Part shown: piece after piece, positions 1-19,139 of the stretch
Numbering within the stretch: position 1 is the first letter of the stretch
How the letters are laid out: every line of letters starts with the position of its first letter
Assembly (NCBI GenBank): GCA_003280025.1
Contig: QCGD01000003.1
Location: 1-64,000, forward strand
From: Prochlorococcus sp. AG-363-P06
Lineage (GTDB): Bacteria; Cyanobacteriota; Cyanobacteriia; PCC-6307; Cyanobiaceae
DNA length: 64,000 nucleotides
Direction of reading: 5' to 3'
Notes under the pieces: model-generated
Database searches by the model: none
What the model saw: only the letters and a program-made list of their open reading frames with translations
What the model was told of the DNA's origin: nothing
Position numbers and translations under genes: made by a program

Positions 1-1731
1 AATTCGCCAATAATTTCGATTATTTTATTTAATGCGAATAAAGAAAAATATAGATTTAAAACATCATTATTTAATCCAAAAAATAATATTAGAATTGTTG
101 ATTTAGATTTAACAATTAAAACTTTTAATTCTCTTAGAAGAAATGATATTAGCTTTTTACATCAATTACCTCAATTTAGTAAAAATGACTTATTAAAATT
201 AAAAAACTTTGGATATAAATCATGTGAAGAATTAATATCTGCAATTATAAATTTCCACAAAAAATTCGATGATAAAAATAAAATTAATGATGAATTTAAA
301 ATTAATATTCAAAAAGATAATCGAATTGAAAAGTTGAATGCAAATAAGAATGTAATTAATTTACTAAAGAGGAATGGAATACAAAATATTTCAGATCTTT
401 CTAGATATACTGAATTTGAGATAAAAAACCTAAATGGATTTGGTCCTATATGTTGGGATAATCTAAAACAAAATTTAGAGATTTATGAAAGGAATTATTC
501 TACAAAAGTAAATTTTAAACTTGGAATTAATAATGATGGAATATTACGTAATACTAATAAAAATGATTATTCAGAAGAATTTTGGAATTTTATACAGGAA
601 AAGTTTCAAAATATAAAAACTCAAACTAATTATTCAGATGTTGAAAATATAGACAAATTATTAGAGTTATTTTTCCAAGAAGCTTATAAGAAAAATAATA
701 ATTTAAGAACTCTAGAAATGATTTACCTAATTAGTGAAGAAGCATTTAAAAAGTTCAATGATTCTTCAATAAAAAAAATCACTCTTGAATATTCACTCTA
801 TAAATATTTAATTTTTAAAAAATTCCTTAATTTAGAAAACACTTTAACAGCATTAACTTGGATAAGCAATTTCAGAAATATTATTGAACGAAATAAAATT
901 ATTATCATTATTTACCTCCAAAGAATTTCAGGAAAAACGTTTGCAGAAATTGGTAGAGAAAGAAATTTATCTAGAGAAAGGATTAGACAATTAGAATTGA
1001 AAATTTCAAAATTCATTGGAACCTCTGCCTCAGAGTTAACAAATATATGTAGGAATTTAAAAGAAAAAATTCTTTTTAAAGAAGAATCTTCTGCTTTCTT
1101 AGAAATTATTAAAAAATTTGGGAGAATACCTCATAAATTGGATGAATTTATTGATGAAAAGAGTTGTAATTACCTTAAATTAAATCTTAAAGAAAGAATC
1201 GACATATATGAAAAATTTAAAGTTGAAATTCCTGCTTCAGAATATGACTTTCATTATGAATACATTACTAACTTAAATGGTATAGCAGGAAGTGGATATT
1301 GGTTAAAACTTGATAACCTAAAAGAATTCCTATTTAGACATGCCCATAAATTAGGTGAGCCTAATCTTATGCCCAAACAGACATCGTTACCTCGTGCAGT
1401 TGGTGGGGTCGTAACAAGGCATGGAGGTCAAAGTAAGGTCGCTTCTTTAATTGGTTTAAAATATCAAGGTCAACTTGTGAATCCTGATGGAGGTAGAACT
1501 TACTGGACCGATGAGAGACTTGAAGAATTGATTGATGACGTAAACATGTTTCTAATACAAGATTTATCAGTAATGCCTGAAAGGACTCAATTTGTTGATT
1601 TCTTCAAAAATACCACGATAAGAAAATATCAAGATAAAAAAGTTTATTCAGCATTTGCAGCATTTACAAAACAAGAAGTTTTAAGCTGGGAAGATGTTGC
1701 CAAAAGATTTAAAAGAAAAATTCTATATTAA
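1..1731 (+). CDS. Partial alpha-CTD-like / sigma-4-like DNA-binding protein (5' end outside window)
   Basis: The reading frame is open from base 1, so the gene begins upstream of the window; the TTG at 334 is only an internal codon. About bases 91-260 encode a helix-hairpin-helix unit very like the RNA polymerase alpha C-terminal domain (LTIKTFNSLRRNDI then LKNFGYKSCEEL). A second, weaker copy follows at about 346-480 (LNGFGPICWDNL). Bases about 930-1000 encode a sigma-70 region-4-type helix-turn-helix (TFAEIGRERNLSRERIRQLE). The C-terminus (about 1355-1731) has a GGVVTRHGGQSKVASLIGL segment followed by a second weaker copy, resembling a repeat I associate with cyanobacterial and plant proteins. 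No sigma region 2 is visible in this part. It probably binds DNA and may regulate the operon that starts 106 bases downstream; that role is inference. Confidence 0.7.
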   Translation, partial: NSPIISIILFNANKEKYRFKTSLFNPKNNIRIVDLDLTIKTFNSLRRNDISFLHQLPQFSKNDLLKLKNFGYKSCEELISAIINFHKKFDDKNKINDEFKINIQKDNRIEKLNANKNVINLLKRNGIQNISDLSRYTEFEIKNLNGFGPICWDNLKQNLEIYERNYSTKVNFKLGINNDGILRNTNKNDYSEEFWNFIQEKFQNIKTQTNYSDVENIDKLLELFFQEAYKKNNNLRTLEMIYLISEEAFKKFNDSSIKKITLEYSLYKYLIFKKFLNLENTLTALTWISNFRNIIERNKIIIIIYLQRISGKTFAEIGRERNLSRERIRQLELKISKFIGTSASELTNICRNLKEKILFKEESSAFLEIIKKFGRIPHKLDEFIDEKSCNYLKLNLKERIDIYEKFKVEIPASEYDFHYEYITNLNGIAGSGYWLKLDNLKEFLFRHAHKLGEPNLMPKQTSLPRAVGGVVTRHGGQSKVASLIGLKYQGQLVNPDGGRTYWTDERLEELIDDVNMFLIQDLSVMPERTQFVDFFKNTTIRKYQDKKVYSAFAAFTKQEVLSWEDVAKRFKRKILY

Positions 1732-1837: not shown

Positions 1838-4468
1838 ATGTCTAAAGAAAAGATAATAAAAGAATATATAAATCAAATTACAGACCAAGTTAAAGCGCGT
1901 CAAGTTTCAATAGATGAGGCTTGCAATAATTTAAAAATATTTTGTGCAAATGATGAAATGAAAGAGTTTCTCCAAGAAGCTCAGCTTACTTTAATGAGAA
2001 AAGAATCTAAATTTAAAACTGGTACCGTAGTATTAAACTCAAGGAAAAAAGATTATTGGTACTTCCATGGTGAAGGAGACGAAATTTGGTCAAACTATAA
2101 ACGTTTCCTTATTGAACATAAAAAATGGGAAGGAGAGAATATTGATCAACTTGATATGGAATCAACATCAATAGTTAATGAATTATTGAATCCCATAAGT
2201 GACAATGACGGAAGAATTCAGGGCCTAGTTTTAGGTTATGTACAATCAGGGAAAACTTCTAATATGGCTGGAATTATAGCCAAAGCAGCAGATAGTGGTT
2301 ATAAATTTATTATAATTTTTGCAGGTCTTACTGATGCATTGAGGAGACAAACTCAAATCAGAATTGAGAATGATATAACTAATCATTCTAAAGAGAGATG
2401 GCATTGGCTAACTGATCAAAATGATGATTTCATAGCAAGTCCTCAACCTTTGCCTGATACAGCTAATAAAGTAACAAAAATCTGTGTAATAAAAAAGAAT
2501 GTAAATATCTTACAAAGATTACTTGAAAAAATTAATCAGCTTACGACTTCTAGATTAAGAAAAATGACTACTTTGATAATAGATGATGAGTGTGATCAAG
2601 CTTCTTTGAATACTAGGGAAAATAGAGATATTGCAGGTGATATATCTGGAACAAATAAATTAATTAAAGATACACTTTATACCTTAAAGAAGGTCTCATA
2701 CGTTGGTTATACTGCAACTCCTAATGCCCCATTTTTAACAAGTCCAAAATCTGCAGATAGCACAGATAATCTATTCCCAAAAGATTTTATAGTTTCGTTA
2801 AAAGAGCCAAAAAATTATTTTGGAGTAAACAAACTTTTCCAGAATGAAGAAAACAGTGATGGTGAATATGAGTTGCCTTTTATAAGAAGAATTGAAGAGG
2901 AGGAAGTTTCATTTCTTCAACCTCCTTCTCAAAAAGAAAGATTTAATTTTAGACCTAAATTAACAACTAGTTTGGTCAAAGCATGCGACTATTATCTCTT
3001 AGCTTTATCAGCAAGAGCTTGCAGGAAAGAAAATTCAGAACATTGCTGCATGATGATTCATACATCAAGATATACAGAAATGCATGATTCCTTTTTACCA
3101 CTTATCAAAGGAGAATGGTTGCAACCGATTGTAAGAGATCTTAAAGAAAATAAAACTAGAACTTTAAAAAGGCTTGAATCTCTATGGGAAAAAGAAATTT
3201 CAATATTGGAGGATTCAACTAGGTTAAATCTCAATTGTCCTCAAAAGCCTGAAAAATTTGACGATTTGAAACCTCACTTATTAACTCAGGCTTTAACAAT
3301 AGAAGTATTGAGAGAAAATTCAAATAACGAAAATGAGGAGGATAGACTAGATTTTGGGAAAGAAACAATTCACGCAATTGTAATAGGCGGAGATGTTTTA
3401 TCAAGAGGTTTAACTATTGAAGGATTATTATGTAGCTTCTTTCTCAGAGAATCAAGTCAAGATGATACCTTAATGCAAATGGGAAGATGGTTTGGTTATA
3501 GAAAAGGCTATGAAGATTTACCTAGGATTTGGATGACATATTCTGTGGAATATGAATTTAGCAAATTTATTGAAAAAGAAGAGCATATGAGAAGAAGAAT
3601 AACAACTATGCGTGAACAAGGAAGAGCACCAATAGAGTTTCCTCCGGAGGTTGCAATATCTAAAGGTCGCAAGCCAACCGCTAAAGGTAAAATTTCGCGA
3701 AGAATTGAAACATCAAATGGAATGTTTTATGATCGTGAATTTTGGACATTGCGTTTCCCATTGGATCAAAATAAGCATAAAAACAATAAAAAGGCTGTAG
3801 AAAAATTAATTGAAGATTTAATTGAAGAGTCCAAATATAAATTTGAAAAAATCAATAATTGTAATGTTGTAAAAAATGTTGACTGTTCCCACATACAAAA
3901 TTTTATTGACAACTTTTATTTTCATGAAAAAGAGAGTTTTGGAGGTTTGAATAAATTTCTAGAATCAGAAAATAATAATTATCCTAATAATTCTTTAAGA
4001 AAATGGAATATTGGTATTATGGAAGGCAAAGGAGAAGGATTAATTAACATCAGTTCTCTTAGAGATATAAGAACTTGTATAAGAACAAAGGTTTATGATG
4101 CAAATTCAAATAATAAAGAAATTTACATCAAGGCGCTTATGGGCCCAACGGATCTTTTAATTGATGTAGATAGAAACAAATTCAAAGATTTTGAAGCAGA
4201 AAATTCTGAATATAATAAACAGAAAAGAGAACTTACTAGAATTTATAGAAAAAAAATATTTGGAGACAGACCCCTCTTAATCATTTATCCTATAAGCAAA
4301 GATTCTAAACCAAATGAAAATAACGAAAACAGAAAAGCTCTTTTTGAAAATATAGATATACCTTATGAAAAACACGATATATTTGGAGTCGTTATTTCTT
4401 TACCCAGTACACCTAAAAAAAGAGTTTTCATAGAAAAAGCTCTAAGAGTTCAAAGTTATCAAAAATGA
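1838..4468 (+). CDS. Z1-domain superfamily II helicase/ATPase
   Basis: This 876-residue protein has the Z1 domain of the MutL/MORC-associated restriction systems. Visible motifs are Walker A GYVQSGKT (residues 133-140), Walker B DDECD (249-253), GYTATPNA shortly after it (motif III-like), GGDVLSRGLTIEGL (from 517), and MQMGRWFGYRKGY (from 546), the motif VI region with its conserved arginine. Known family role: a superfamily II helicase-like ATPase encoded with an REase-fold protein and a GHKL ATPase, often with a cytosine methylase. It is the first gene of a five-gene same-strand run; the DUF4420 gene starts 58 bases after its stop. Family assignment is firm. Translocation on DNA and the target recognised are not shown by sequence. 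Confidence 0.9.
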   Translation: MSKEKIIKEYINQITDQVKARQVSIDEACNNLKIFCANDEMKEFLQEAQLTLMRKESKFKTGTVVLNSRKKDYWYFHGEGDEIWSNYKRFLIEHKKWEGENIDQLDMESTSIVNELLNPISDNDGRIQGLVLGYVQSGKTSNMAGIIAKAADSGYKFIIIFAGLTDALRRQTQIRIENDITNHSKERWHWLTDQNDDFIASPQPLPDTANKVTKICVIKKNVNILQRLLEKINQLTTSRLRKMTTLIIDDECDQASLNTRENRDIAGDISGTNKLIKDTLYTLKKVSYVGYTATPNAPFLTSPKSADSTDNLFPKDFIVSLKEPKNYFGVNKLFQNEENSDGEYELPFIRRIEEEEVSFLQPPSQKERFNFRPKLTTSLVKACDYYLLALSARACRKENSEHCCMMIHTSRYTEMHDSFLPLIKGEWLQPIVRDLKENKTRTLKRLESLWEKEISILEDSTRLNLNCPQKPEKFDDLKPHLLTQALTIEVLRENSNNENEEDRLDFGKETIHAIVIGGDVLSRGLTIEGLLCSFFLRESSQDDTLMQMGRWFGYRKGYEDLPRIWMTYSVEYEFSKFIEKEEHMRRRITTMREQGRAPIEFPPEVAISKGRKPTAKGKISRRIETSNGMFYDREFWTLRFPLDQNKHKNNKKAVEKLIEDLIEESKYKFEKINNCNVVKNVDCSHIQNFIDNFYFHEKESFGGLNKFLESENNNYPNNSLRKWNIGIMEGKGEGLINISSLRDIRTCIRTKVYDANSNNKEIYIKALMGPTDLLIDVDRNKFKDFEAENSEYNKQKRELTRIYRKKIFGDRPLLIIYPISKDSKPNENNENRKALFENIDIPYEKHDIFGVVISLPSTPKKRVFIEKALRVQSYQK

Positions 4469-4526
4469 AATTAGTTTACATTTACAACTTGAAAATTCTT
4501 AAATTCTATAACTTTCTTTTTTATTA

Positions 4527-5525
4527 ATGTTAGAAACGATCAAAAATACATGGGAAATACTTGAACCCATTCGCAAAATATCAAAAGAACAGTTTGAGAT
4601 ATGTCCTTTTGAAATCTCAGAAAACTTAAAACCTGATTCAGTTTTATTTTTCATAAACGATAAGAATGAAAAAGGAATTTTATTAAAGGATGATAATCTT
4701 GAAACTAAGCTGCCAAAACACGGTTGTTCCAGACTTGAAATAATACGTCAAAATATTTCAATTGAAGGTTTTGAAAATAAATATATAAAAGTAACTTGTT
4801 TAGATGAATCCCTTAATTATGCTTTTTCAATATTAGTAAGCAGAATTCTTCAATTATTAATTGATGGCTCTTCACCTTCTAGTGCGACAATAGATTCTGT
4901 AAATGAGTTAAGAAAGCTTCTTTCTCGTTCTAGAGGTCCCTTACCTAAAGAAGAAGAAATTATTGGCCTTGTTGGAGAATTGATTTTTCTTTTTTCATTA
5001 GTTGAAAAAAAACAAAATTTATGGAAAGGATGGAATGGCCCATTTAAAGCATCCAAAGACTATACCCTAAGTAATGTTGATGTTGAGTTAAAAGCATCAC
5101 TACAATCAGGAGAGCCATCAATAACAGTTAACAATTTAAATCAACTTGAACCAGTAGTAGAAAGATCCCTGTTTTTATTTCATTCAACACTTGTAAAAAA
5201 TCCTAATGGAGATATATCAGTGCCAAGATTAATTAAAAAAATAATAGACAAAATTGATGACAAAGATGATTTCAACAATACTTTATTCACTGCTGGTTAT
5301 TCGAAAGAACATGAAGAGATGTGGGATTCTTTTAGATTTTCTGTAATAGAAAAAACATCATATCAAGTATTAAATGATTTCCCAAGAATAAATCAGAACT
5401 CTTTTATTAATTCTTCAATCCCAGATAGCATTTCAAAGATAAGATACGATATTGAACTAAACAAGCTAAGTAAATTTAAAATAGAAAATAAATCTTTAAT
5501 TGATTTAATTTATCAAAATGAATAA
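4527..5525 (+). CDS. PD-(D/E)XK nuclease-fold protein, DUF4420 family
   Basis: This is a 332-residue protein of the DUF4420 type, the likely nuclease of the operon. A conserved Gly-Glu lies at residues 150-151 (GLVGELIFL), then a W-x-G-W segment. The catalytic signature is D185-x-E187-x-K189 (NVDVELKAS), as expected for an REase-fold core with an upstream glutamate. Its last eight bases overlap the start of the GHKL ATPase gene, so the two are probably translationally coupled. By family association it is the cleavage subunit driven by the Z1 helicase and GHKL ATPase. All catalytic residues appear intact, arguing against decay. Substrate and cut type are unknown. Confidence 0.85.
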   Translation: MLETIKNTWEILEPIRKISKEQFEICPFEISENLKPDSVLFFINDKNEKGILLKDDNLETKLPKHGCSRLEIIRQNISIEGFENKYIKVTCLDESLNYAFSILVSRILQLLIDGSSPSSATIDSVNELRKLLSRSRGPLPKEEEIIGLVGELIFLFSLVEKKQNLWKGWNGPFKASKDYTLSNVDVELKASLQSGEPSITVNNLNQLEPVVERSLFLFHSTLVKNPNGDISVPRLIKKIIDKIDDKDDFNNTLFTAGYSKEHEEMWDSFRFSVIEKTSYQVLNDFPRINQNSFINSSIPDSISKIRYDIELNKLSKFKIENKSLIDLIYQNE

Positions 5526-7482
5526 TCAGGGAACAAGCGTTAATATATATAGTGAGCCTTTCCCAAATAGCGGTGCCATGCCTGGAGAAGGTGCAACTAA
5601 GTTACTTGGTCTATCATTAACCCCTTTAGAAATTCTACTAAGAGAAACACTTCAAAATAGTTGGGATGCATCCATAGAACAAAACTCTAAGCCATCTTTT
5701 GAAATTAATTTGAGGCTTTTAAAAGTAAATGAATCTATTGCACTTAAAAAATTTTTCTTTCAGCTACCTCCCATCGATTCAAAAGAGAGATTGGTATTAG
5801 AAAACTTTTTGAATAAAAAGTATCAATTAATTTTGGAAATTTGTGATTTCGGCACTAAAGGCCTTGGTGGGCCATTTTCAGCATCCGAAGCAATTAGCAC
5901 AGAAGAAGATTATGATTTTGTGAATTTTGTAAAGAATATTGGCAGTCATAGAGACCAAAGAAATGGAGGCGGAACTTATGGTTTCGGAAAATCATCTCTA
6001 TTTAATATGAGTAAATGTAAAACTATACTTATAGATTCATTAACTTCTTACAAAAATAAACTTCAAAATCGCTTTATTGGATATGCTTTGGGCACCTCAT
6101 ACGATGCATTCGAAGATCATGAGAAAAAGCGCAAAAGATTTACAGGTAGACATTGGTGGGGCTCAAAAGGAAACTATCCTAATGATCTCAAAGTAGTGGA
6201 TCCAATTTTAGATGAGGAAGCAAGAATAATTTCCAAGGATCTTGGACTAAAAGTAAGAAATCATGAAAAGGATAAGGGTACTTCATTAGTAATTCTTGAT
6301 CCAAATTTAGATGATCTTGATGAGAATTTCTCTCCTGAATTAATACCCAAAATTCAAAAAAAAATCAACTTAAGATTCCAAGAAATATTACTTTGGTGGG
6401 CATGGCCAAAATTCACTCTTATGAGTAATAATGAAAGGCCAATGAGTTGTCACATATCAGTTTTTGGAGATAAAGAAGAGATCCCAGCTCCAGAGAGATT
6501 ATTACCATTGAGTTTTTTAGCTAACGCTTTAAGAGAAGCTAGAAATAAAAAAAATCCTATTTACTCATCTAGGCCTAGAATAAAGTTAGGACATATTGGT
6601 ACCTATGTTGATGAATCTAAAGGAGATCTATATAGTGATTCAAGATTTAGAAATGTTTTAGAAACAACACTTATTCCTAAAAAATTGGGACATTTTGCCT
6701 TGCTTAGGCCAGCAGAATTGGTAGTTAGGTATGTGACACGTAGTAGTATTTTGGATGATAACCAACCGCAATGGGCAGGAGTCTTTATATGCAGTGAGGA
6801 AGAAGATATCGAGAGAGTTTTTGCAAAGTCCGAGCCTCCTACACACGACGACTGGAAGCCAAGTTCATCACATGATCTTTCAAAAGATCAAAAAAAATTA
6901 GTTGGAAGTGCAAAAAATCAAATCTATAAAGAAGTAAAACAATTATCTGGCGAAGAAACATCAGATTCTTGGGAAGACTCCTCGGAAACCGATAGAAATT
7001 CTATTGCTTGGTTAATGGATGATATTGGATCTTCAATTATTGGCAGAGGAATTGGAGGCGCTGATGGCTCAAAGAAACTAGGCAAGAAAAAAAGTAAAAA
7101 TAAAATTACAACGAAATTAACCAAGCCAACTTATTTTAAAACAAGCTTTATAAATGAAAAAATAGTTGCTGAATTCAAAATGACTCTTACTGGCAAAGAA
7201 GGTAAAAATGTTCAGATAGATTTTAAACCATGGATTTTAACCGAGGAAGGTAAGGTTGAATCCGCACCAAATGGTTTAAAGCCTAAAATAATCAAATTAA
7301 AATCATCAAACCTTTATGAGGTAAACGAAGAACAAATTCAAAAACAAATAAATCAAAATGGGGGAGGGATATTTAGTTTGCCTTTTGTATTACAGAAAAA
7401 TCAAATAAATATTGAAGTTAGTGTTGAGATTCCAGATAACGTAGTTATTACATTAATTGCTAATTTAAATAATAATTTATAA
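5518..7482 (+). CDS. GHKL (Hsp90/MutL/MORC-type) ATPase
   Basis: This 654-residue protein carries an N-terminal Bergerat ATP-binding fold. The N-box has E43 and N47 (RETLQNSWDA), motif D-x-G is D110-F-G112 with a following GLGG, and a glycine-rich lid GGGTYGFGKSS lies at 150-160. This arrangement fits the MutL/MORC-like branch used in predicted restriction systems rather than a histidine kinase: there is no His-phosphotransfer domain or membrane segment. Residues about 440-560 are charged and low in hydrophobics (linker), followed by a beta-rich C-terminal part. The start overlaps the DUF4420 stop by eight bases and the next gene begins two bases after its own stop. It is probably an ATP-dependent clamp or switch in the complex. 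Confidence 0.88.
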   Translation: MNNQGTSVNIYSEPFPNSGAMPGEGATKLLGLSLTPLEILLRETLQNSWDASIEQNSKPSFEINLRLLKVNESIALKKFFFQLPPIDSKERLVLENFLNKKYQLILEICDFGTKGLGGPFSASEAISTEEDYDFVNFVKNIGSHRDQRNGGGTYGFGKSSLFNMSKCKTILIDSLTSYKNKLQNRFIGYALGTSYDAFEDHEKKRKRFTGRHWWGSKGNYPNDLKVVDPILDEEARIISKDLGLKVRNHEKDKGTSLVILDPNLDDLDENFSPELIPKIQKKINLRFQEILLWWAWPKFTLMSNNERPMSCHISVFGDKEEIPAPERLLPLSFLANALREARNKKNPIYSSRPRIKLGHIGTYVDESKGDLYSDSRFRNVLETTLIPKKLGHFALLRPAELVVRYVTRSSILDDNQPQWAGVFICSEEEDIERVFAKSEPPTHDDWKPSSSHDLSKDQKKLVGSAKNQIYKEVKQLSGEETSDSWEDSSETDRNSIAWLMDDIGSSIIGRGIGGADGSKKLGKKKSKNKITTKLTKPTYFKTSFINEKIVAEFKMTLTGKEGKNVQIDFKPWILTEEGKVESAPNGLKPKIIKLKSSNLYEVNEEQIQKQINQNGGGIFSLPFVLQKNQINIEVSVEIPDNVVITLIANLNNNL

Positions 7483-7484
7483 AT

Positions 7485-8375
7485 ATGTCAACACTTGCTT
7501 ATCCTTATCCTAATTTATTTCCTTATATTGAAAGTAAATGTCTTTGGTTATATTCGGTAGATGGTGAGGAACACAAGGAATTTAAGGAACCATTAAGTAA
7601 TTGGGATTATAAAGCTTCTCTTGAAATAAAATGCAAATTAACTTGGGATATAAGAGATATTTTTGAGCAAGCTAATCTTCTTACAATCATTAATTATTCA
7701 AGAATAGCGATAATAGAAATATCCTCGCCAGGGCAAATATGCTCAGGTAGAAAAAAAATTTTTGATTATCCGCTTATAGATTTGAATAAATTACCAGACC
7801 AAATAATCTTAAAAACTAATTCTTTAAATAATTCAAGTAATATTCAATTTCGTCTTATTATTTATACAGAAAATTGTGAGTTAAATAGATTTAAATATAA
7901 GAAAGGAAGCATCTTATATGATGAAATTTCAACCTTAGTGCTTGAAGGAGAACGTGCAAGGATTTCTTTGCAAAGAAGGGACTTCAAAGATTTCAATAAT
8001 GAAAATGCTATGTGGTTTGTAAAATTTTATCCGGAGAATTTATATCAAACCTTTAATGAAACTTATACCCTTTTTTTAAACAGTAATAAGAAAAACCTAG
8101 AAGATCAAATACGGCGTAGTATTTATCTTAAAGACGCACTGAAAACAGATTTTGTAATTACTATTATGTGCTCCACTCTTCTTAATGAAGATTTAGATAT
8201 TGATTTGGATGAAGATTACCCAGATAGTTCATTAGGTTTTCGAATAAAAGAATGGTTAAAAGACTTTGGTATAGAATCTAAAACTAACTTAGAAAAATTC
8301 AAATTTGAAATTACATACAATCAAAATATTATTAAAACAAAATGCCAAAATCTTTTCTGTTCTGATTTTGATTAA
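7485..8375 (+). CDS. Unrecognised operon protein of the Z1/DUF4420/GHKL system
   Basis: I do not recognise this 296-residue protein. It has no signal peptide or membrane segment. The N-terminal half alternates short hydrophobic strands and looks beta-rich; the C-terminal half holds an acidic patch near residues 235-250 (DLDIDLDEDYPDSS) before a short helical end. It starts two bases after the GHKL ATPase stop and ends eleven bases before the next gene, so it is cotranscribed and probably present in fixed stoichiometry. A structural or specificity subunit is plausible by position only. Confidence 0.6.
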   Translation: MSTLAYPYPNLFPYIESKCLWLYSVDGEEHKEFKEPLSNWDYKASLEIKCKLTWDIRDIFEQANLLTIINYSRIAIIEISSPGQICSGRKKIFDYPLIDLNKLPDQIILKTNSLNNSSNIQFRLIIYTENCELNRFKYKKGSILYDEISTLVLEGERARISLQRRDFKDFNNENAMWFVKFYPENLYQTFNETYTLFLNSNKKNLEDQIRRSIYLKDALKTDFVITIMCSTLLNEDLDIDLDEDYPDSSLGFRIKEWLKDFGIESKTNLEKFKFEITYNQNIIKTKCQNLFCSDFD

Positions 8376-8386
8376 AAATAAAAACA

Positions 8387-9178
8387 ATGTATTTATTACC
8401 ACAACTCAAAAAAGATACTGGCCAAGAAGCAATTTTTAATTTTATTAAAAAAGGAAAAATTGATGAATCAGATATTTTAAAAAATTATGATGGATTATGT
8501 TATACCCTTTCTGAAAATAGAAAAGTAAAAAATGAAGATTTACATTTACTGCGTAATAGGATTTTAGATCTAGCAACAAAAAATGGATTTAGAAATGAGA
8601 GCCCAAATCGTTTTAGGGAATTCGAATATGATGTAGCTATTTGTCTAAGTAATTGCAGCTTTCTTTGGCACAACTCATTACCTACTGGGGAAGCTTTGAG
8701 AAACAACTTTTGGACTTACCTAACAATTGTTTTATTGCCTGATTTGGCAGCTTGGAGATGGCCAATACCTAAAGACGGTGAACTGAGTACTGCATGGAAT
8801 GGAAGAATTTTGGGAGGGACTAGAAATACCTTCCAAAGAATATTTAGAAGAGTATTAAGTTTTGATAGAGGATCAAATCATCCCGAACGCTTTACTTTAA
8901 TAAAAGACCTAATGGAAGATGATTTTAGTGCAATTTTGGAAAGAACCAGTATAGGTTGTAATCCGAAAATTGCGATTGCATTAGCAGAGGAATTTCTTTT
9001 AATGAGAAAAAGGAATGAAAACAAAAGTAAGCAAATTCAGACTTTAATTTATAGAGAATCAACCAAAGATTTAACTGCTTATGGCAAGGTACAATCTTTA
9101 GATTTACTTGAAGAAAAAGATTTAAAAGAATTAATTTCTCAAGTATTTGATCAAAAAGAGAATCAATTATTAAATTAA
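8387..9178 (+). CDS. DUF6339-like protein, last gene of the defence operon
   Basis: This 263-residue protein is rich in Trp and Arg in its middle (LRNNFWTYLTIVLLPDLAAWRW, about residues 104-125, then GGTRNTFQRIFRR). That pattern recalls the DUF6339 family, which I remember as a neighbour of Z1/DUF4420/ATPase genes; the identification is tentative. The N-terminus (LPQLKKDTG) lacks any signal peptide. It closes the five-gene run and converges with the HNH gene on the other strand, 64 bases away. No catalytic motif is evident. Role in the system unknown. Confidence 0.55.
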   Translation: MYLLPQLKKDTGQEAIFNFIKKGKIDESDILKNYDGLCYTLSENRKVKNEDLHLLRNRILDLATKNGFRNESPNRFREFEYDVAICLSNCSFLWHNSLPTGEALRNNFWTYLTIVLLPDLAAWRWPIPKDGELSTAWNGRILGGTRNTFQRIFRRVLSFDRGSNHPERFTLIKDLMEDDFSAILERTSIGCNPKIAIALAEEFLLMRKRNENKSKQIQTLIYRESTKDLTAYGKVQSLDLLEEKDLKELISQVFDQKENQLLN

Positions 9179-9242: not shown

Positions 9243-10235
9243 TCAAATTTTATTTTCAAATCTTTTTTTTAGTGCGTCTCTAGATGGATAAAATTCTTCA
9301 CTAGCTGGCAATCTTAAATATTTACTATCAAAATTTCTGTATTCATTATCTTCTATAGTTTTATCAACATAAATTATATAATTTTCATCAATTCGAAATA
9401 AATTCAAATCAAATAATGTGTGTATATCTGCTCTAAGAAGAATACCATTTTGAATATGATTGGTTGAAGATCCTTTATAGGGTATTATGTGCGCTGCTTC
9501 AAGAGTTTCAGGAATAGTTGAATTAGTAATCGCACATTTATTGTCATAGACCTTTAATAATTTTCTTCTGAATTCTCCTTGACCTTGCCGCCTACAAATA
9601 GAGGCTAGTATCCTATCTCTTGAGTCTTGAATATCTTTTACATTAAAAAAATCTTGGTCATTAATATTTTCTCTGAAAATATCTAAATCAATTCTCCTAA
9701 TTTTATTTGGAATAAATTTCAAGTTAAAATTTTGCTGAACAAAATCATCAAGACTTGAATATTTCTTTTTAATATCATTTATCCTATTATCTGAAATTCT
9801 CGAGAATCCCCCAAAACTTTTAATAGGTGATGAACCTATTTCTAAATTATTTAAATGTATATCTATTGCTAATGGCGTAGATAAGAAATAAATATATTCC
9901 CAAGTCTTATTATCTAACGATCCCCATATGTTATTTGCTAATTTAGAACTATGAATTTTCCCCGTGCATCTAGAAATGAATCTATAGTGACTTGAATAAA
10001 CACATATGACGTAATCATCTTTTTGCATAAGATTCCAATTTCTAAGATTATTTTTCCCAGGCATAGCTCCCCAGCAAAAAATACTTTTTTTATTGTTTGA
10101 TATAAGCAATCTCTCAATTTGAGATTTATCTAAAGAAATTTCAACTTTTCTAAAATCTATAGGATTGATTATTGAATCATCTAAATGAGATCTGGCAGAG
10201 GAATTTCCGGCAGTAAAAATAAAAATTTGAGTCAT
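9243..10235 (-). CDS. HNH endonuclease with possible PUA-like reader N-terminus
   Basis: The C-terminal third of this 330-residue protein is an HNH_2-type nuclease: H249 (AAHIIPYKG), N263 (NGILLRADIH) and H272 (DIHTLFD) give the expected His-Asn-His set. The N-terminal half has a NWNLMQKDDYVICVY... TWEYIYFL pattern, which looks like the PUA-like fold shared by EVE, ASCH and SRA modules. Those modules read modified bases in other restriction proteins, so a modification-dependent nuclease is possible, but the domain call is inference. Its start overlaps the stop of the MazG-like gene by four bases (ATGA), so the two are one transcript. It faces the Z1 operon convergently. Confidence 0.75.
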   Translation of the reverse strand: MTQIFIFTAGNSSARSHLDDSIINPIDFRKVEISLDKSQIERLLISNNKKSIFCWGAMPGKNNLRNWNLMQKDDYVICVYSSHYRFISRCTGKIHSSKLANNIWGSLDNKTWEYIYFLSTPLAIDIHLNNLEIGSSPIKSFGGFSRISDNRINDIKKKYSSLDDFVQQNFNLKFIPNKIRRIDLDIFRENINDQDFFNVKDIQDSRDRILASICRRQGQGEFRRKLLKVYDNKCAITNSTIPETLEAAHIIPYKGSSTNHIQNGILLRADIHTLFDLNLFRIDENYIIYVDKTIEDNEYRNFDSKYLRLPASEEFYPSRDALKKRFENKI

Positions 10236-10579
10236 TTTAAATCAGTATATTTTTCACTTTTCCCCTTAGAAAGTTTTACAGGATATTTAACACCATTTTT
10301 TTCAATTTTTTTATTTGCGATACTGATTGGATCTAATCCCATAATCTCACAAAGCCTAATTGAGTAGATTAATACATCAGCAATTTCATCCGAAATTTTA
10401 ACAACATTTTCTTTATCTAATGTTAAATCTTCTTTAGCCCATTGGAAATTCTCTAAAAGTTCAGCGGCTTCAATACAAATAGAAATAGCTAAATTCTTTG
10501 GAGTATGAAATTTATCCCAATCTCTTTCTTCACAAAAACTTGAAATTTTTGATTGAAGTCTTTTTATATCTTGATTCAT
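10232..10579 (-). CDS. MazG-like nucleotide pyrophosphohydrolase (dCTPase-like)
   Basis: This 115-residue all-alpha protein matches the short MazG/RS21-C6-like NTP pyrophosphohydrolases. The metal-binding pattern is visible as IEAAELLENFQW followed by ISDEIADVLIYSIRL (E-x-x-E then E-x-x-D), and the usual WDKFHTPKNLA N-terminus is present. The family hydrolyses (d)NTPs to NMPs and pyrophosphate, often favouring dCTP or modified dCTP. It is upstream of, and overlaps by four bases, the HNH nuclease gene. That pairing could link nucleotide-pool cleaning to DNA restriction, though it may simply be housekeeping. Confidence 0.85.
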   Translation of the reverse strand: MNQDIKRLQSKISSFCEERDWDKFHTPKNLAISICIEAAELLENFQWAKEDLTLDKENVVKISDEIADVLIYSIRLCEIMGLDPISIANKKIEKNGVKYPVKLSKGKSEKYTDLK

Positions 10580-11564: not shown

Positions 11565-12584
11565 ATGGTGCCCTCAGAATTAGCTCAATTTTTAGAGAAA
11601 GTAATTACTTCCTCATTGCAAAAAAGTATTATGATTTGGGGAGCCCCTGGCATTGGGAAGTCAAGTATTGTTAGTTCGGTAGCAAATAAATTAAATCTAG
11701 AATTTATAGATCTAAGACTTAGTCAATTAGCCCCTACTGATTTACGCGGTCTGCCTGTTCCGCAGCCTGAAACTCCAGATCGCAAAGGAATTGTCAAATG
11801 GTATAGACCAGAATTTCTGCCTAATGATGGTAAGGGTATTTTATTTCTTGATGAAATTAATATGGCCCCGCCAGCAATGCAGGGAGTCGCACAACAATTA
11901 ATTCTTGATAGAAAAATTGGTAATTATAAAGTTCCTAATGGTTGGTTTGTTTTTGCTGCTGGGAATAGAAAAGAGGATAAAGCATCTGTTTTTGATATGC
12001 CTGCTCCACTTTCCAATAGATTTTTACATCTTTTTGTAGAAACAAATTTTGATTGTTTTAAGGCTTATTCATTTGAAAAAAATATATCTGAAGAAGTTAT
12101 TTCTTTTTTATCTTTCAGACCAAATTTATTGCATAAATTTTCTGATCATGAGATGGCATGGCCTTCTCCAAGAACATGGGAATTAGCAAGTGATTTATAC
12201 AAAATCAATTTACCAATTCAGTCCGCTGTTGGAGAAAGTGTTGCACTCGAATTTGAGTCTTACCTTGAGGTCTATGGTAAGATTCCAAACCTTAAATTGA
12301 TAATAGAGGGCAAAGCAAAATCAATAAAATTTCCAGATGAAATATCATGTAAATGGGCAACATTAACAGGTTTGATTACTAGGTGTAACAAACCAAATGA
12401 TGTCTTAATAGTATTTAATTGGCTATTTGGAAATGCAGGTGAAGAATGGATTCAACTATTCGTATCAGACATAGTAGATAAATTTGAGAAAAAAAAGCAA
12501 TTAGCGAATTTATCAAAAATCTTAATTAAAGAGAAATCGATTCAGAAATATATGATCAAAAAAAATGAATTGTTGAAGAAATAA
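11565..12584 (+). CDS. MoxR-family AAA+ ATPase
   Basis: A 339-residue AAA+ protein: Walker A GAPGIGKS at residues 26-33, Walker B LFLDE ending at D96-E97, then NMAPPAMQGVAQQLILDRKIG and a sensor-1-like AAGNR, typical of MoxR proteins that act as chaperones with VWA partners. It starts at the ATG at 11565. The VWA/metallopeptidase gene begins seven bases after its stop, so they form one operon. Family knowledge: MoxR-VWA pairs remodel or metallate client proteins; the client here is unknown. Confidence 0.88.
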   Translation: MVPSELAQFLEKVITSSLQKSIMIWGAPGIGKSSIVSSVANKLNLEFIDLRLSQLAPTDLRGLPVPQPETPDRKGIVKWYRPEFLPNDGKGILFLDEINMAPPAMQGVAQQLILDRKIGNYKVPNGWFVFAAGNRKEDKASVFDMPAPLSNRFLHLFVETNFDCFKAYSFEKNISEEVISFLSFRPNLLHKFSDHEMAWPSPRTWELASDLYKINLPIQSAVGESVALEFESYLEVYGKIPNLKLIIEGKAKSIKFPDEISCKWATLTGLITRCNKPNDVLIVFNWLFGNAGEEWIQLFVSDIVDKFEKKKQLANLSKILIKEKSIQKYMIKKNELLKK

Positions 12585-12591
12585 TCTGATC

Positions 12592-13728
12592 ATGATTAGC
12601 GAAAATGATCAACTACATGATCTTATAAGAGCAACTCAACTTAGATTAAGAAAAGTATCCCCTTTTTTTGCTGCTCTTTCCCTTTTTTCAAAAGTAGAAT
12701 TTATTACAAATGTTCCAATAGCTGCAACTGATGGAATTAAAATTTATTTTCATCCTTTAAATTTCTCAAAATTAAAACCATCGGAAAGAGATGCCATTTT
12801 TCTTCATGAGCTTCTTCATATCGCTCTTCTTCATCCTTCTAGAAAAAAAAATAGAGATTCTTTAATTTTTAATATTGCAGCAGATATTGTTGTTAATGGC
12901 ATGATTGCAGAATTAAAAGATTTTAAACTTCCAAAAGGAGCCATAAGAGATATGAACTTGGAAGATTTAAGTGTTGAGGAGATTTATGAAATCATTCATA
13001 GTAGAACTGAATTTCCTAAATTAGAAATGATTGATTTAATAAAAGGGGTTCAAGATAAAGATAACTTAAAAGAAAAAGATGAAAATAAAATTTTGAATGA
13101 TATAGATGTTGAAACTTATTGGAAAAGAGCAATTAATAATTCTCTAGCAATGACATCATCTAAAAATCAAGGAAATATTTCAAATAAATTAAAAAGAAAT
13201 TTAGATCAAATAGTTAATCCTCAATTAGAATGGAAAACCATTCTATGGAGATATTTAGTAAAAACCCCTTCTGATTTCTCAGGATTTGATAGAAGATTTT
13301 TATACAGAGAATTGTACTTAGAAGAATTATCAATTGAAACCTTAGAAGTTTTCTGTTGTATTGATACCAGTGGTTCAATTTCACAAGAAATCTTATCAAA
13401 ATTTATTAGCGAATTAAAAGGAATTTTATCTTCCTACCCATTAATAAAATGTCAATTATTCTATGCGGACAGTGAATGTTACGGACCTTATGATATTGAT
13501 CTACATGGTGAATTACCAATGCCAAAAGGTGGAGGAGGCACTGATTTTGCTCCTTTTTTTAAAGCAATTAAAGATAAAGGTAACTATAGTTTGCCTATCT
13601 CTGTTTATTTGACAGATGGATATGGTACATTCCCAGAAGAAACTAGTTTGGAAACTTTATGGGTTATAACTCCAGGTGGAATTAAATCTGAAGACATACC
13701 ATTTGGTGAGGTATGTAGGTTAATTTAA
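12592..13728 (+). CDS. Putative metallopeptidase / VWA-like protein (DUF2201 type)
   Basis: This 378-residue protein combines two modules. The N-terminal part has a zincin motif H72-E-L-L-H76 followed by a further His at 81 (HELLHIALLHPSR). The C-terminal part is a von Willebrand A-like domain with a MIDAS D258-T-S-G-S262, a later GGGGTDF (threonine of the MIDAS) and YLTDGYG. This is the DUF2201-type partner of MoxR ATPases. Both the zinc and MIDAS residues look intact. It lies seven bases after the MoxR gene and ends ten bases before the convergent leucine-rich-repeat gene. Confidence 0.85.
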   Translation: MISENDQLHDLIRATQLRLRKVSPFFAALSLFSKVEFITNVPIAATDGIKIYFHPLNFSKLKPSERDAIFLHELLHIALLHPSRKKNRDSLIFNIAADIVVNGMIAELKDFKLPKGAIRDMNLEDLSVEEIYEIIHSRTEFPKLEMIDLIKGVQDKDNLKEKDENKILNDIDVETYWKRAINNSLAMTSSKNQGNISNKLKRNLDQIVNPQLEWKTILWRYLVKTPSDFSGFDRRFLYRELYLEELSIETLEVFCCIDTSGSISQEILSKFISELKGILSSYPLIKCQLFYADSECYGPYDIDLHGELPMPKGGGGTDFAPFFKAIKDKGNYSLPISVYLTDGYGTFPEETSLETLWVITPGGIKSEDIPFGEVCRLI

Positions 13729-19038: not shown

Positions 19039-19139
19039 CTACTATTTGAACTTATCAGTTAATGGTCACTTTGTGTGAAAATGTTTTGGTTTTTTTGTTT
19101 CTTTCTAGATAGCATTTAGTAGAAAAGACTTTATTGCTG

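What the first reader, a model, noticed from the sequence alone, without database searches (positions are those of the whole stretch)
1838..9178. Methyltransferase-less Z1/DUF4420/GHKL operon: possible new variant of the MORC-associated restriction system
Seen: five same-strand genes, spaced by 58, -8, 2 and 11 bases, encode a Z1 helicase, an intact D-x-E-x-K REase-fold protein, an intact GHKL ATPase, an unknown protein and a DUF6339-like protein. Known: comparative genomics has predicted restriction systems built on MutL/MORC-type ATPases with Z1 helicases and REase domains, usually with a cytosine methylase. Inferred: no methylase is visible here, so either it lies upstream of base 1 or the system attacks modified or otherwise distinguishable DNA. 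A plain phage-defence system in a tiny-genome picocyanobacterium would be notable.
Basis: partly seen in the sequence, partly recalled or inferred. Interest (0 to 1): 0.8.

Follow-up and report, generated by a model that had tools for sequence, protein, structure and literature searches.

The report
Two-part DNA restriction system, split
These five genes look like the cutting half of a bacterial anti-virus system whose self-marking half (a DNA methylase operon) sits elsewhere in the same genome, so it is a variant of an already predicted system rather than a methylase-free one.

Summary
The five-gene operon (Z1 helicase, DUF4420 nuclease, GHKL ATPase, unknown protein, DUF6339) is real, with intact catalytic motifs. 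'Methyltransferase-less' is not supported. The window begins at a contig end, and the genome carries one cytosine-C5 methylase match, in a second operon (GHKL'-X'-DUF6339'-methylase) on another contig. In 5 of 5 Prochlorococcus genomes with both operons on one contig they are neighbours, tail to tail; of 7 genomes with this GHKL gene, 6 also have the methylase and the seventh is 51% complete. A Synechococcus elongatus plasmid carries both operons side by side; many actinobacterial copies lie near related methylases, though two Corynebacterium MAGs lack a clear one. The kind was predicted before (Iyer 2008; Miller 2022 'Type I'). Less expected: both operons carry an ATPase/X/DUF6339 triplet, and a well conserved methylase (84-98% identity) stands beside three kinds of partner cassette, including strongly diverged versions of this one (37-53%). 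Best reading: a restriction module that spares DNA marked by the methylase module; the DNA-cutting mechanism is inferred. Whether the methylase operon is a shared hub for swappable effectors is open.

The parts
1838..4468 (+). Z1-domain SF2 helicase/translocase (876 aa)
   Evidence: Pfam Z1 3.8e-60; MzaC-like 2.2e-87 but 293.9 of 1500 bits needed; Walker A GYVQSGKT, DDEC, DTLMQMGRWFG
4527..5525 (+). DUF4420 PD-(D/E)XK nuclease (332 aa)
   Evidence: Pfam DUF4420 3.6e-44; DVELK at residue 185
5518..7482 (+). GHKL ATPase of paraMORC2 type (654 aa)
   Evidence: PADLOC PDC-M33A 6.9e-17; GHKL motifs and EPPTH, which fits the ExxxH motif that Iyer 2008 gives for paraMORC2
7485..8375 (+). unknown protein 'unkD' (296 aa): modelled as an N-terminal Ig-like beta sandwich plus a C-terminal helical part
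   Evidence: AlphaFold2 mean pLDDT 84.8, pTM 0.61; weak Ig-like matches over residues 9-157; conserved position in the cassette
8387..9178 (+). DUF6339 protein (263 aa), mostly helical model
   Evidence: Pfam DUF6339 7.4e-09; PADLOC PDC-M33C 6.1e-06; AlphaFold2 mean pLDDT 90.9

Best explanation
The operon is the restriction half of a two-operon, C5-methylation-based restriction system. The modification half (GHKL'-X'-DUF6339'-C5 methylase, beside a Vsr mismatch endonuclease) is on contig C11 of the same genome, most likely in the same genomic hotspot across an assembly gap. Shown: gene content, intact motifs, linkage of the two halves in relatives and on a plasmid, a common clade with methylases near actinobacterial cassettes. 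Inferred: the methylase marks host DNA at a fixed motif; unmarked DNA is recognised by a complex in which the paraMORC2 ATPase acts as an ATP-gated DNA clamp; the Z1 protein translocates on it, as proposed for N.CglI in the CglI system; this licenses the DUF4420 nuclease to cut. unkD and DUF6339 would be recognition or assembly subunits; which part reads the DNA is not known.
For: One C5 methylase match in the genome; no match for PF01555 and one sub-cutoff match for PF02384 (18.5 of 20.4 bits). The methylase is the last gene of an operon with GHKL' (PDC-M33A 1.7e-28) and DUF6339' (Pfam 5.9e-17). Tail-to-tail neighbours in G021, G041, G166, G241, G261: 5 of 5 with both on one contig. Genus of 266 genomes: window-type GHKL in 7, methylase in 16, both in 6; at 90% completeness or more, 5 of 5 cassette genomes have it against 12 of 87 in all, hypergeometric p 2.1e-5, which ignores shared ancestry. 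Both modules side by side on plasmid pIITB6_1: methylase 40% over 661 aa, GHKL' 40% over 657. C5 methylase (profile label; Pfam run on one) in the fetched stretch of 20 of 25 actinobacterial loci, 12 of these 20 in one clade with the Prochlorococcus module methylases (support 99/98). Other Z1 cassettes of the genus also lie by a C5 methylase (G004, G028, G044; Pfam). Vsr at the hotspot, Pfam 2.7e-32. Z1-bearing N-proteins hydrolyse ATP on dsDNA and are needed for cleavage in systems with a C5 methylase (PMC4267653: abstract, one section, passages).
Against: No experiment. In the window's own assembly the two halves are on different contigs, at least 9.7 kb plus an unknown gap apart, and the contig ends share no overlap. 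Two similar Corynebacterium MAGs carry the cassette without a clear C5 methylase (none in G669, one sub-cutoff match in G668; their completeness was not told), so cassettes may work without one. The Agrobacterium plasmid copy, which also shows no DUF4420, has no methylase in 18 kb. Eight of the 20 actinobacterial methylases are of other, more distant groups. The methylase operon also stands beside other cassettes, so its link to this one is not exclusive. Hotspot co-location alone could bring defence genes together.
Confidence: 0.68

Rival explanations
1. The cassette is a self-sufficient, methylase-independent defence system (sensing phage-modified DNA, DNA ends or a replication intermediate); the methylase operon is a separate PDC-M33-like system that shares the hotspot.
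For: Two Corynebacterium MAGs with the cassette and no clear C5 methylase; cassette and methylase operon are separated in the window's genome; the methylase operon also neighbours other cassettes; another GHKL-plus-nuclease protein, VcSduA, of an organisation earlier annotated as paraMORC3, defends directly (passages of PMC12137116).
Against: Direct adjacency in 5 of 5 relatives and on a plasmid of another genus; related methylases within 3 kb of 12 of 25 actinobacterial cassettes in one clade; a 5mC-seeking enzyme would have to live with the genome's own C5 methylase.
Confidence: 0.22
2. The operon is a variant of the MZA anti-phage system.
For: Z1 and DUF4420 resemble MzaC and MzaD; a protein with a weak, sub-cutoff sigma-70 region 4 match lies just upstream, and mzaA is called a sigma factor in PMC9523054.
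Against: Scores far below the MzaC/MzaD cut-offs (293.9 of 1500, 81.3 of 420 bits); no AIPR/MzaE and no MzaB match in the operon; the upstream protein has no MzaA match and no relative in the fetched stretches of 25 actinobacterial loci.
Confidence: 0.06
3. The operon is a decaying remnant, cut off from its methylase by rearrangement.
For: Among the six genomes with both genes, only here are the operon and the methylase module not adjacent, and their order in the hotspot differs.
Against: All five frames are open and catalytic motifs are intact; the tight gene spacing is kept.
Confidence: 0.04

Closest known systems
'Type I' putative defence system of Miller et al. 2022 (PMC9523054, section 11 and passages read)
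   Same: Z1 protein, PD-(D/E)XK protein, cytosine methylase and three further genes, associated with DNA repair endonucleases (Vsr here)
   Different: Here the methylase sits in a second operon with its own GHKL'/X'/DUF6339' triplet, and in this genome the two are unlinked in the assembly. The paper prints 'DUF4220'; I take this to be DUF4420. That its three further genes are GHKL, unkD and DUF6339 is my inference; figure and supplement were not seen.
Third (Z1-helicase) operon type and paraMORC2, Iyer et al. 2008 (PMC2292703, section 3 parts 1-2 of 3 read)
   Same: SFII helicase with DThhQXuRhFG motif, E-D-ExK REase, GHKL ATPase with ExxxH motif, C5 methylases and Vsr
   Different: The parts read do not describe unkD, DUF6339 or a second triplet on the methylase operon
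PADLOC candidate PDC-M33 (A, B, C)
   Same: A and C models match in both operons
   Different: No PDC-M33B match for unkD or X'; Z1 and DUF4420 added
MZA (mzaABCDE)
   Same: Z1 and DUF4420 homologues
   Different: No MzaB-type match and no AIPR in the operon
CglI / NgoAVII restriction systems (PMC4267653)
   Same: Z1-bearing ATPase, C5 methylase
   Different: PLD-family nuclease with B3 domain instead of DUF4420; the system is described as three genes, so no GHKL, unkD or DUF6339

Membership tests
Miller 2022 Type I | Z1 protein and PD-(D/E)XK protein (printed DUF4220, taken as DUF4420) in one operon | tested here: met
Miller 2022 Type I | cytosine methylase in the gene set | tested here: inconclusive
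   not in the window; one match in the genome, on C11; direct neighbour in 5 of 5 relatives with both on one contig
Miller 2022 Type I | three further genes of the published identity | not testable with these tools
   number fits (GHKL, unkD, DUF6339); identities are in a figure and supplement not seen
Miller 2022 Type I | association with a DNA repair endonuclease | tested here: met
   Vsr Pfam 2.7e-32 beside the C11 methylase; also by Z1 in G021, G041, G166, G261
paraMORC2 (Iyer 2008) | GHKL motifs plus ExxxH in the C-terminal part of the S5 domain | tested here: met
   ETLQNSWDA, DFGTKG, GGTYGFGK, EPPTH; E, P, P and H of the last invariant in six rows; the S5 fold itself was not modelled
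MZA | MzaC and MzaD above NCBIfam cut-off | tested here: not met
   293.9 of 1500 and 81.3 of 420 bits
MZA | AIPR (MzaE) and MzaB | tested here: not met
   no match in the five genes
PDC-M33 | A and C components | tested here: met
   6.9e-17 and 6.1e-06; PADLOC's own thresholds were not shown
PDC-M33 | B component | tested here: inconclusive
   no PADLOC match for unkD; profile comparison with M33B finds nothing, but from shallow profiles
Type IV (modification-dependent) restriction | cuts only modified DNA | not testable with these tools
   needs an assay

The most novel reading that the evidence does not exclude
A modification hub with plug-in effectors: one well conserved operon (paraMORC2'-X'-DUF6339'-C5 methylase) supplies the self mark, and three unrelated or strongly diverged effector cassettes (Z1/DUF4420/paraMORC2; MORC/Z1/DUF4420/AIPR; PDC-M33 triplet) are exchanged beside it, each reading the same mark, with a duplicated ATPase/X/DUF6339 platform used once for marking and once for cutting. 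Against it: MORC/Z1/DUF4420/AIPR cassettes also stand by other C5 methylases (G004, G044).
Probability: 0.3. Interest if true: 0.72.

Novelty: new variant of a known kind. Interest (0 to 1): 0.47.

Why it matters
It removes a proposed exception (a methylase-free member) and replaces it with a testable architecture: self-marking and cutting carried by separate operons that differ strongly in conservation. If one methylase operon protects against several different effectors, a strain could change its defence by swapping a cassette while keeping the self mark, in one of the most abundant ocean phototrophs (recalled). The Synechococcus elongatus plasmid copy offers a version in a cultured strain for tests.

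Tried and rejected
Methylase-less variant: rejected. Window gene 1-1731 as MzaA or as part of the cassette: no MzaA match; Vsr, not this gene, is upstream of Z1 in G021, G041, G166, G261; no relative in the fetched stretches of 25 actinobacterial loci. Contig joining by overlap: none between C11 end and C3 start; a supposed continuation on C8 proved to be an S1-domain-like gene, judged by eye. Homology between unkD, PDC-M33B and X': nothing by profile comparison, but from profiles of 4-5 rows. Folds: DUF6339 model, Foldseek best E 0.51, VIA-align best Z 6.9 over 66 residues (cyclin-like helices); unkD, Foldseek best E 3.7e-3 (antibody domains), VIA-align best Z 7.9 over 101 residues, with the Ig-like AGS-C domain of a Pycsar cyclase at Z 6.5; none convincing. 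Solved structures by sequence: unkD profile two hits at E 0.35 and 0.92, DUF6339 profile none, Z1 protein none. Phage records: no match to the GHKL protein at 1e-3. Wider cyanobacteria: window-type GHKL in 3 of 386 sampled genomes, all this genus, yet the plasmid collection gave a further cyanobacterial copy, so the sampling misses some. The actinobacterial survey rests on two short peptide patterns and is not exhaustive. Plasmids: 26 records matched Z1; I opened 3: Synechococcus (both modules), Agrobacterium (no methylase), Priestia (Z1, PD-(D/E)XK, an AlwI-type gene and a cytosine methylase, without the other three). Tree: of 7 further Prochlorococcus C5 loci asked for, 3 gave a usable ORF and 4 were dropped; long branches were flagged. 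Eight of 25 actinobacterial loci are not in strict five-gene order: L103 starts inside the cassette, L099 has its GHKL in two pieces, L079 holds N runs; the other five were not examined. Gene labels come from profiles built here; Pfam was run on one locus (L080). Literature: terms DUF6339, PDC-M33, paraMORC, DUF4420 gave 8 papers, none with DUF6339 or PDC-M33; some searches gave or repeated papers used; some searches gave listings only. PMC8011034 was seen in passages and not used. No claim that the arrangement is unpublished goes beyond these searches.
Full report
What is there. Five genes on the + strand at 1838-9178 encode a Z1 protein, a DUF4420 nuclease, a GHKL ATPase, an unknown protein (here unkD) and a DUF6339 protein, with gaps 58, -8, 2 and 11. 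Catalytic motifs are intact: Walker A GYVQSGKT, DDEC and DTLMQMGRWFG in Z1 (the last fits the DThhQXuRhFG motif that Iyer et al. 2008 give for this helicase type), DVELK in DUF4420, and three GHKL motifs in the ATPase. The ATPase also carries EPPTH, which fits the ExxxH motif given for paraMORC2; its E, P, P and H are invariant in six Prochlorococcus sequences.

Where it is. The window is the start of contig C3 of a 1.69-Mb, 19-contig genome, estimated 99.97% complete. Upstream lies one gene, cut by the contig end, with an RNA-polymerase alpha-CTD match and a sub-cutoff sigma-70 region 4 match. It is not part of the conserved set.

The methylase. The genome has one C5 methylase match, on contig C11, none for PF01555 and only a sub-cutoff one for PF02384. 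It is the last gene of a four-gene operon, GHKL'-X'-DUF6339'-methylase: GHKL' matches PDC-M33A at 1.7e-28 and carries EPVTH, DUF6339' matches Pfam DUF6339 at 5.9e-17, and the methylase has the motifs DLFSGAGG, GPPCQPF, ENV and QLRPR. A Vsr mismatch endonuclease, a usual companion of C5 methylases (recalled), is beside it.

Linkage in the genus. Among the 266 genomes of the genus that are held, the window-type GHKL is in 7 (E up to 1e-5) and the methylase in 16 (E up to 1e-60). Six of the 7 have both; the seventh, G031, is 51% complete and its copy lies on a 4.1-kb contig. In the five genomes with both on one contig (G021, G041, G166, G241, G261) the two operons are neighbours, tail to tail, with Vsr on the other side of the cassette in the four whose contig reaches that far. 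Among genomes at least 90% complete, 5 of 5 with the cassette have the methylase, against 12 of 87 in all (p 2.1e-5 by the hypergeometric test, shared ancestry ignored). Z1 cassettes of other kinds in G004, G028 and G044 lie by C5 methylases of their own (Pfam).

The window's genome is the exception. In G041, G166 and G261 the hotspot lies between a SIMPL-domain gene plus Vsr and aroQ. Here the SIMPL gene, Vsr and methylase operon are on C11, towards its right end, while aroQ is in the window at 19134, after two tRNA genes. The simplest reading is that C11 and C3 flank one gap in an enlarged hotspot; the operons are then at least 9.7 kb plus the gap apart. The contig ends do not overlap, so this is an inference.

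Cassette exchange. Between the six genomes compared, the methylase is 84-98% and DUF6339' 86-99% identical, but the five cassette proteins fall into three groups that are only 37-53% identical to each other ({G041, G166, G241}, {G021, G261}, {G000}). Of the 16 methylase copies, 5 have this cassette next door, 4 a MORC-Z1-DUF4420-AIPR cassette (MzaB and MzaE matches in G055, the one tested), 4 a cassette of two small ORFs and a PDC-M33-like triplet (A, B and C matched in G204 and G022, the two tested), 2 (G073, G256) are cut by contig ends, and G000 is the separated case. Over 14 sequences the methylase is conserved along its length except for its last 45 or so residues, which suggests, but does not show, one target motif.

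Outside the genus. A search with the GHKL alignment found 28 loci, 3 Prochlorococcus and 25 actinobacterial. Of the 25, 17 have all five genes in strict order on one strand, 20 have a C5 methylase in the fetched stretch and 9 a Vsr, by profiles built here. Twelve of the 20 methylases are long (644-767 aa) and form one clade with the six Prochlorococcus module methylases sampled (support 99/98); the other 13 sampled C5 methylases, 8 of them from these loci, fall outside, with long-branch warnings. The Synechococcus elongatus IITB6 plasmid pIITB6_1 carries cassette and methylase operon divergently side by side across the record origin. G558, another genus of the family, has the methylase operon next to a third-type-like cassette in which only the ATPase matched PDC-M33A. 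Against this: two Corynebacterium MAGs have the cassette with no clear C5 methylase in the held genome, a Micrococcus copy has none in its stretch though one elsewhere in its genome, and an Agrobacterium plasmid has Z1-GHKL-unkD-DUF6339 without a methylase in 18 kb.

Mechanism. Z1-bearing N-proteins of CglI and NgoAVII hydrolyse ATP on dsDNA, and this is required for cleavage by their partner nuclease, in systems with a C5 methylase; translocation is the authors' suggestion (PMC4267653: abstract, one section and passages). A GHKL ATPase fused to a PD-(D/E)XK nuclease, VcSduA, of an organisation earlier annotated as paraMORC3, protects against phage and needs both activities (PMC12137116, passages). 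By analogy I infer a clamp (paraMORC2), a translocase (Z1) and a nuclease (DUF4420) that spare methylated DNA. The roles of unkD (Ig-like sandwich plus helices) and DUF6339 (mostly helical) are unknown; no fold match is convincing.

Known or new. The kind is known: Iyer 2008 and the 'Type I' set of Miller 2022, a Z1 protein, a PD-(D/E)XK protein, a cytosine methylase and three more genes. A Corynebacterium diphtheriae island with a Z1 helicase, DUF4420, a C5 methylase, an EcoRII-like gene and three unclassified genes was noted in 2017 (PMC5379612, one passage). The two-operon form with a second ATPase/X/DUF6339 triplet and swapped cassettes was not met in what I read, within the searches named in Tried and rejected.

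Noticed in passing
window 1-1731: Protein with RNA-polymerase alpha-CTD matches and a weak sigma-70 region 4 match, cut by the contig start; a 1603-aa relative with an SF2 helicase end lies in the same hotspot of G204 (L064:4731-9542).
   Followed up: partly
window 9243-10579 (-): HNH endonuclease, distantly like the phosphorothioate-DNA-binding restriction endonuclease model (39.9 of 180 bits), overlapping a MazG-like pyrophosphohydrolase gene.
   Followed up: no
window 11565-13728 (+): AAA ATPase gene followed by a DUF2201 metallopeptidase/VWA gene.
   Followed up: no
L027:13376-19640 (C11 right arm): Row of four genes ending in an ATP-dependent DNA-ligase-like protein and a 1196-aa RNase_H_2/AAA_12 helicase that matches PADLOC MkoA.
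   Followed up: no
L062, L064, L065, L071: Two small ORFs (101 and 75 aa) with near-identical starts in four genomes, between the methylase and the PDC-M33-like triplet; no Pfam match over cut-off in the copy tested.
   Followed up: partly
L015:14707-15672; L067, L111, L112: Tyrosine recombinase (Phage_integrase) beside the hotspot near aroQ in several genomes; a tblastn with it found nothing in the window.
   Followed up: partly
L125:8834-10634: In G408, a relative of the C5 methylase whose match passes three TAA codons, next to a Vsr-like gene.
   Followed up: no
L069:2376-3802: The MORC-like gene of G208 is split into two ORFs.
   Followed up: no
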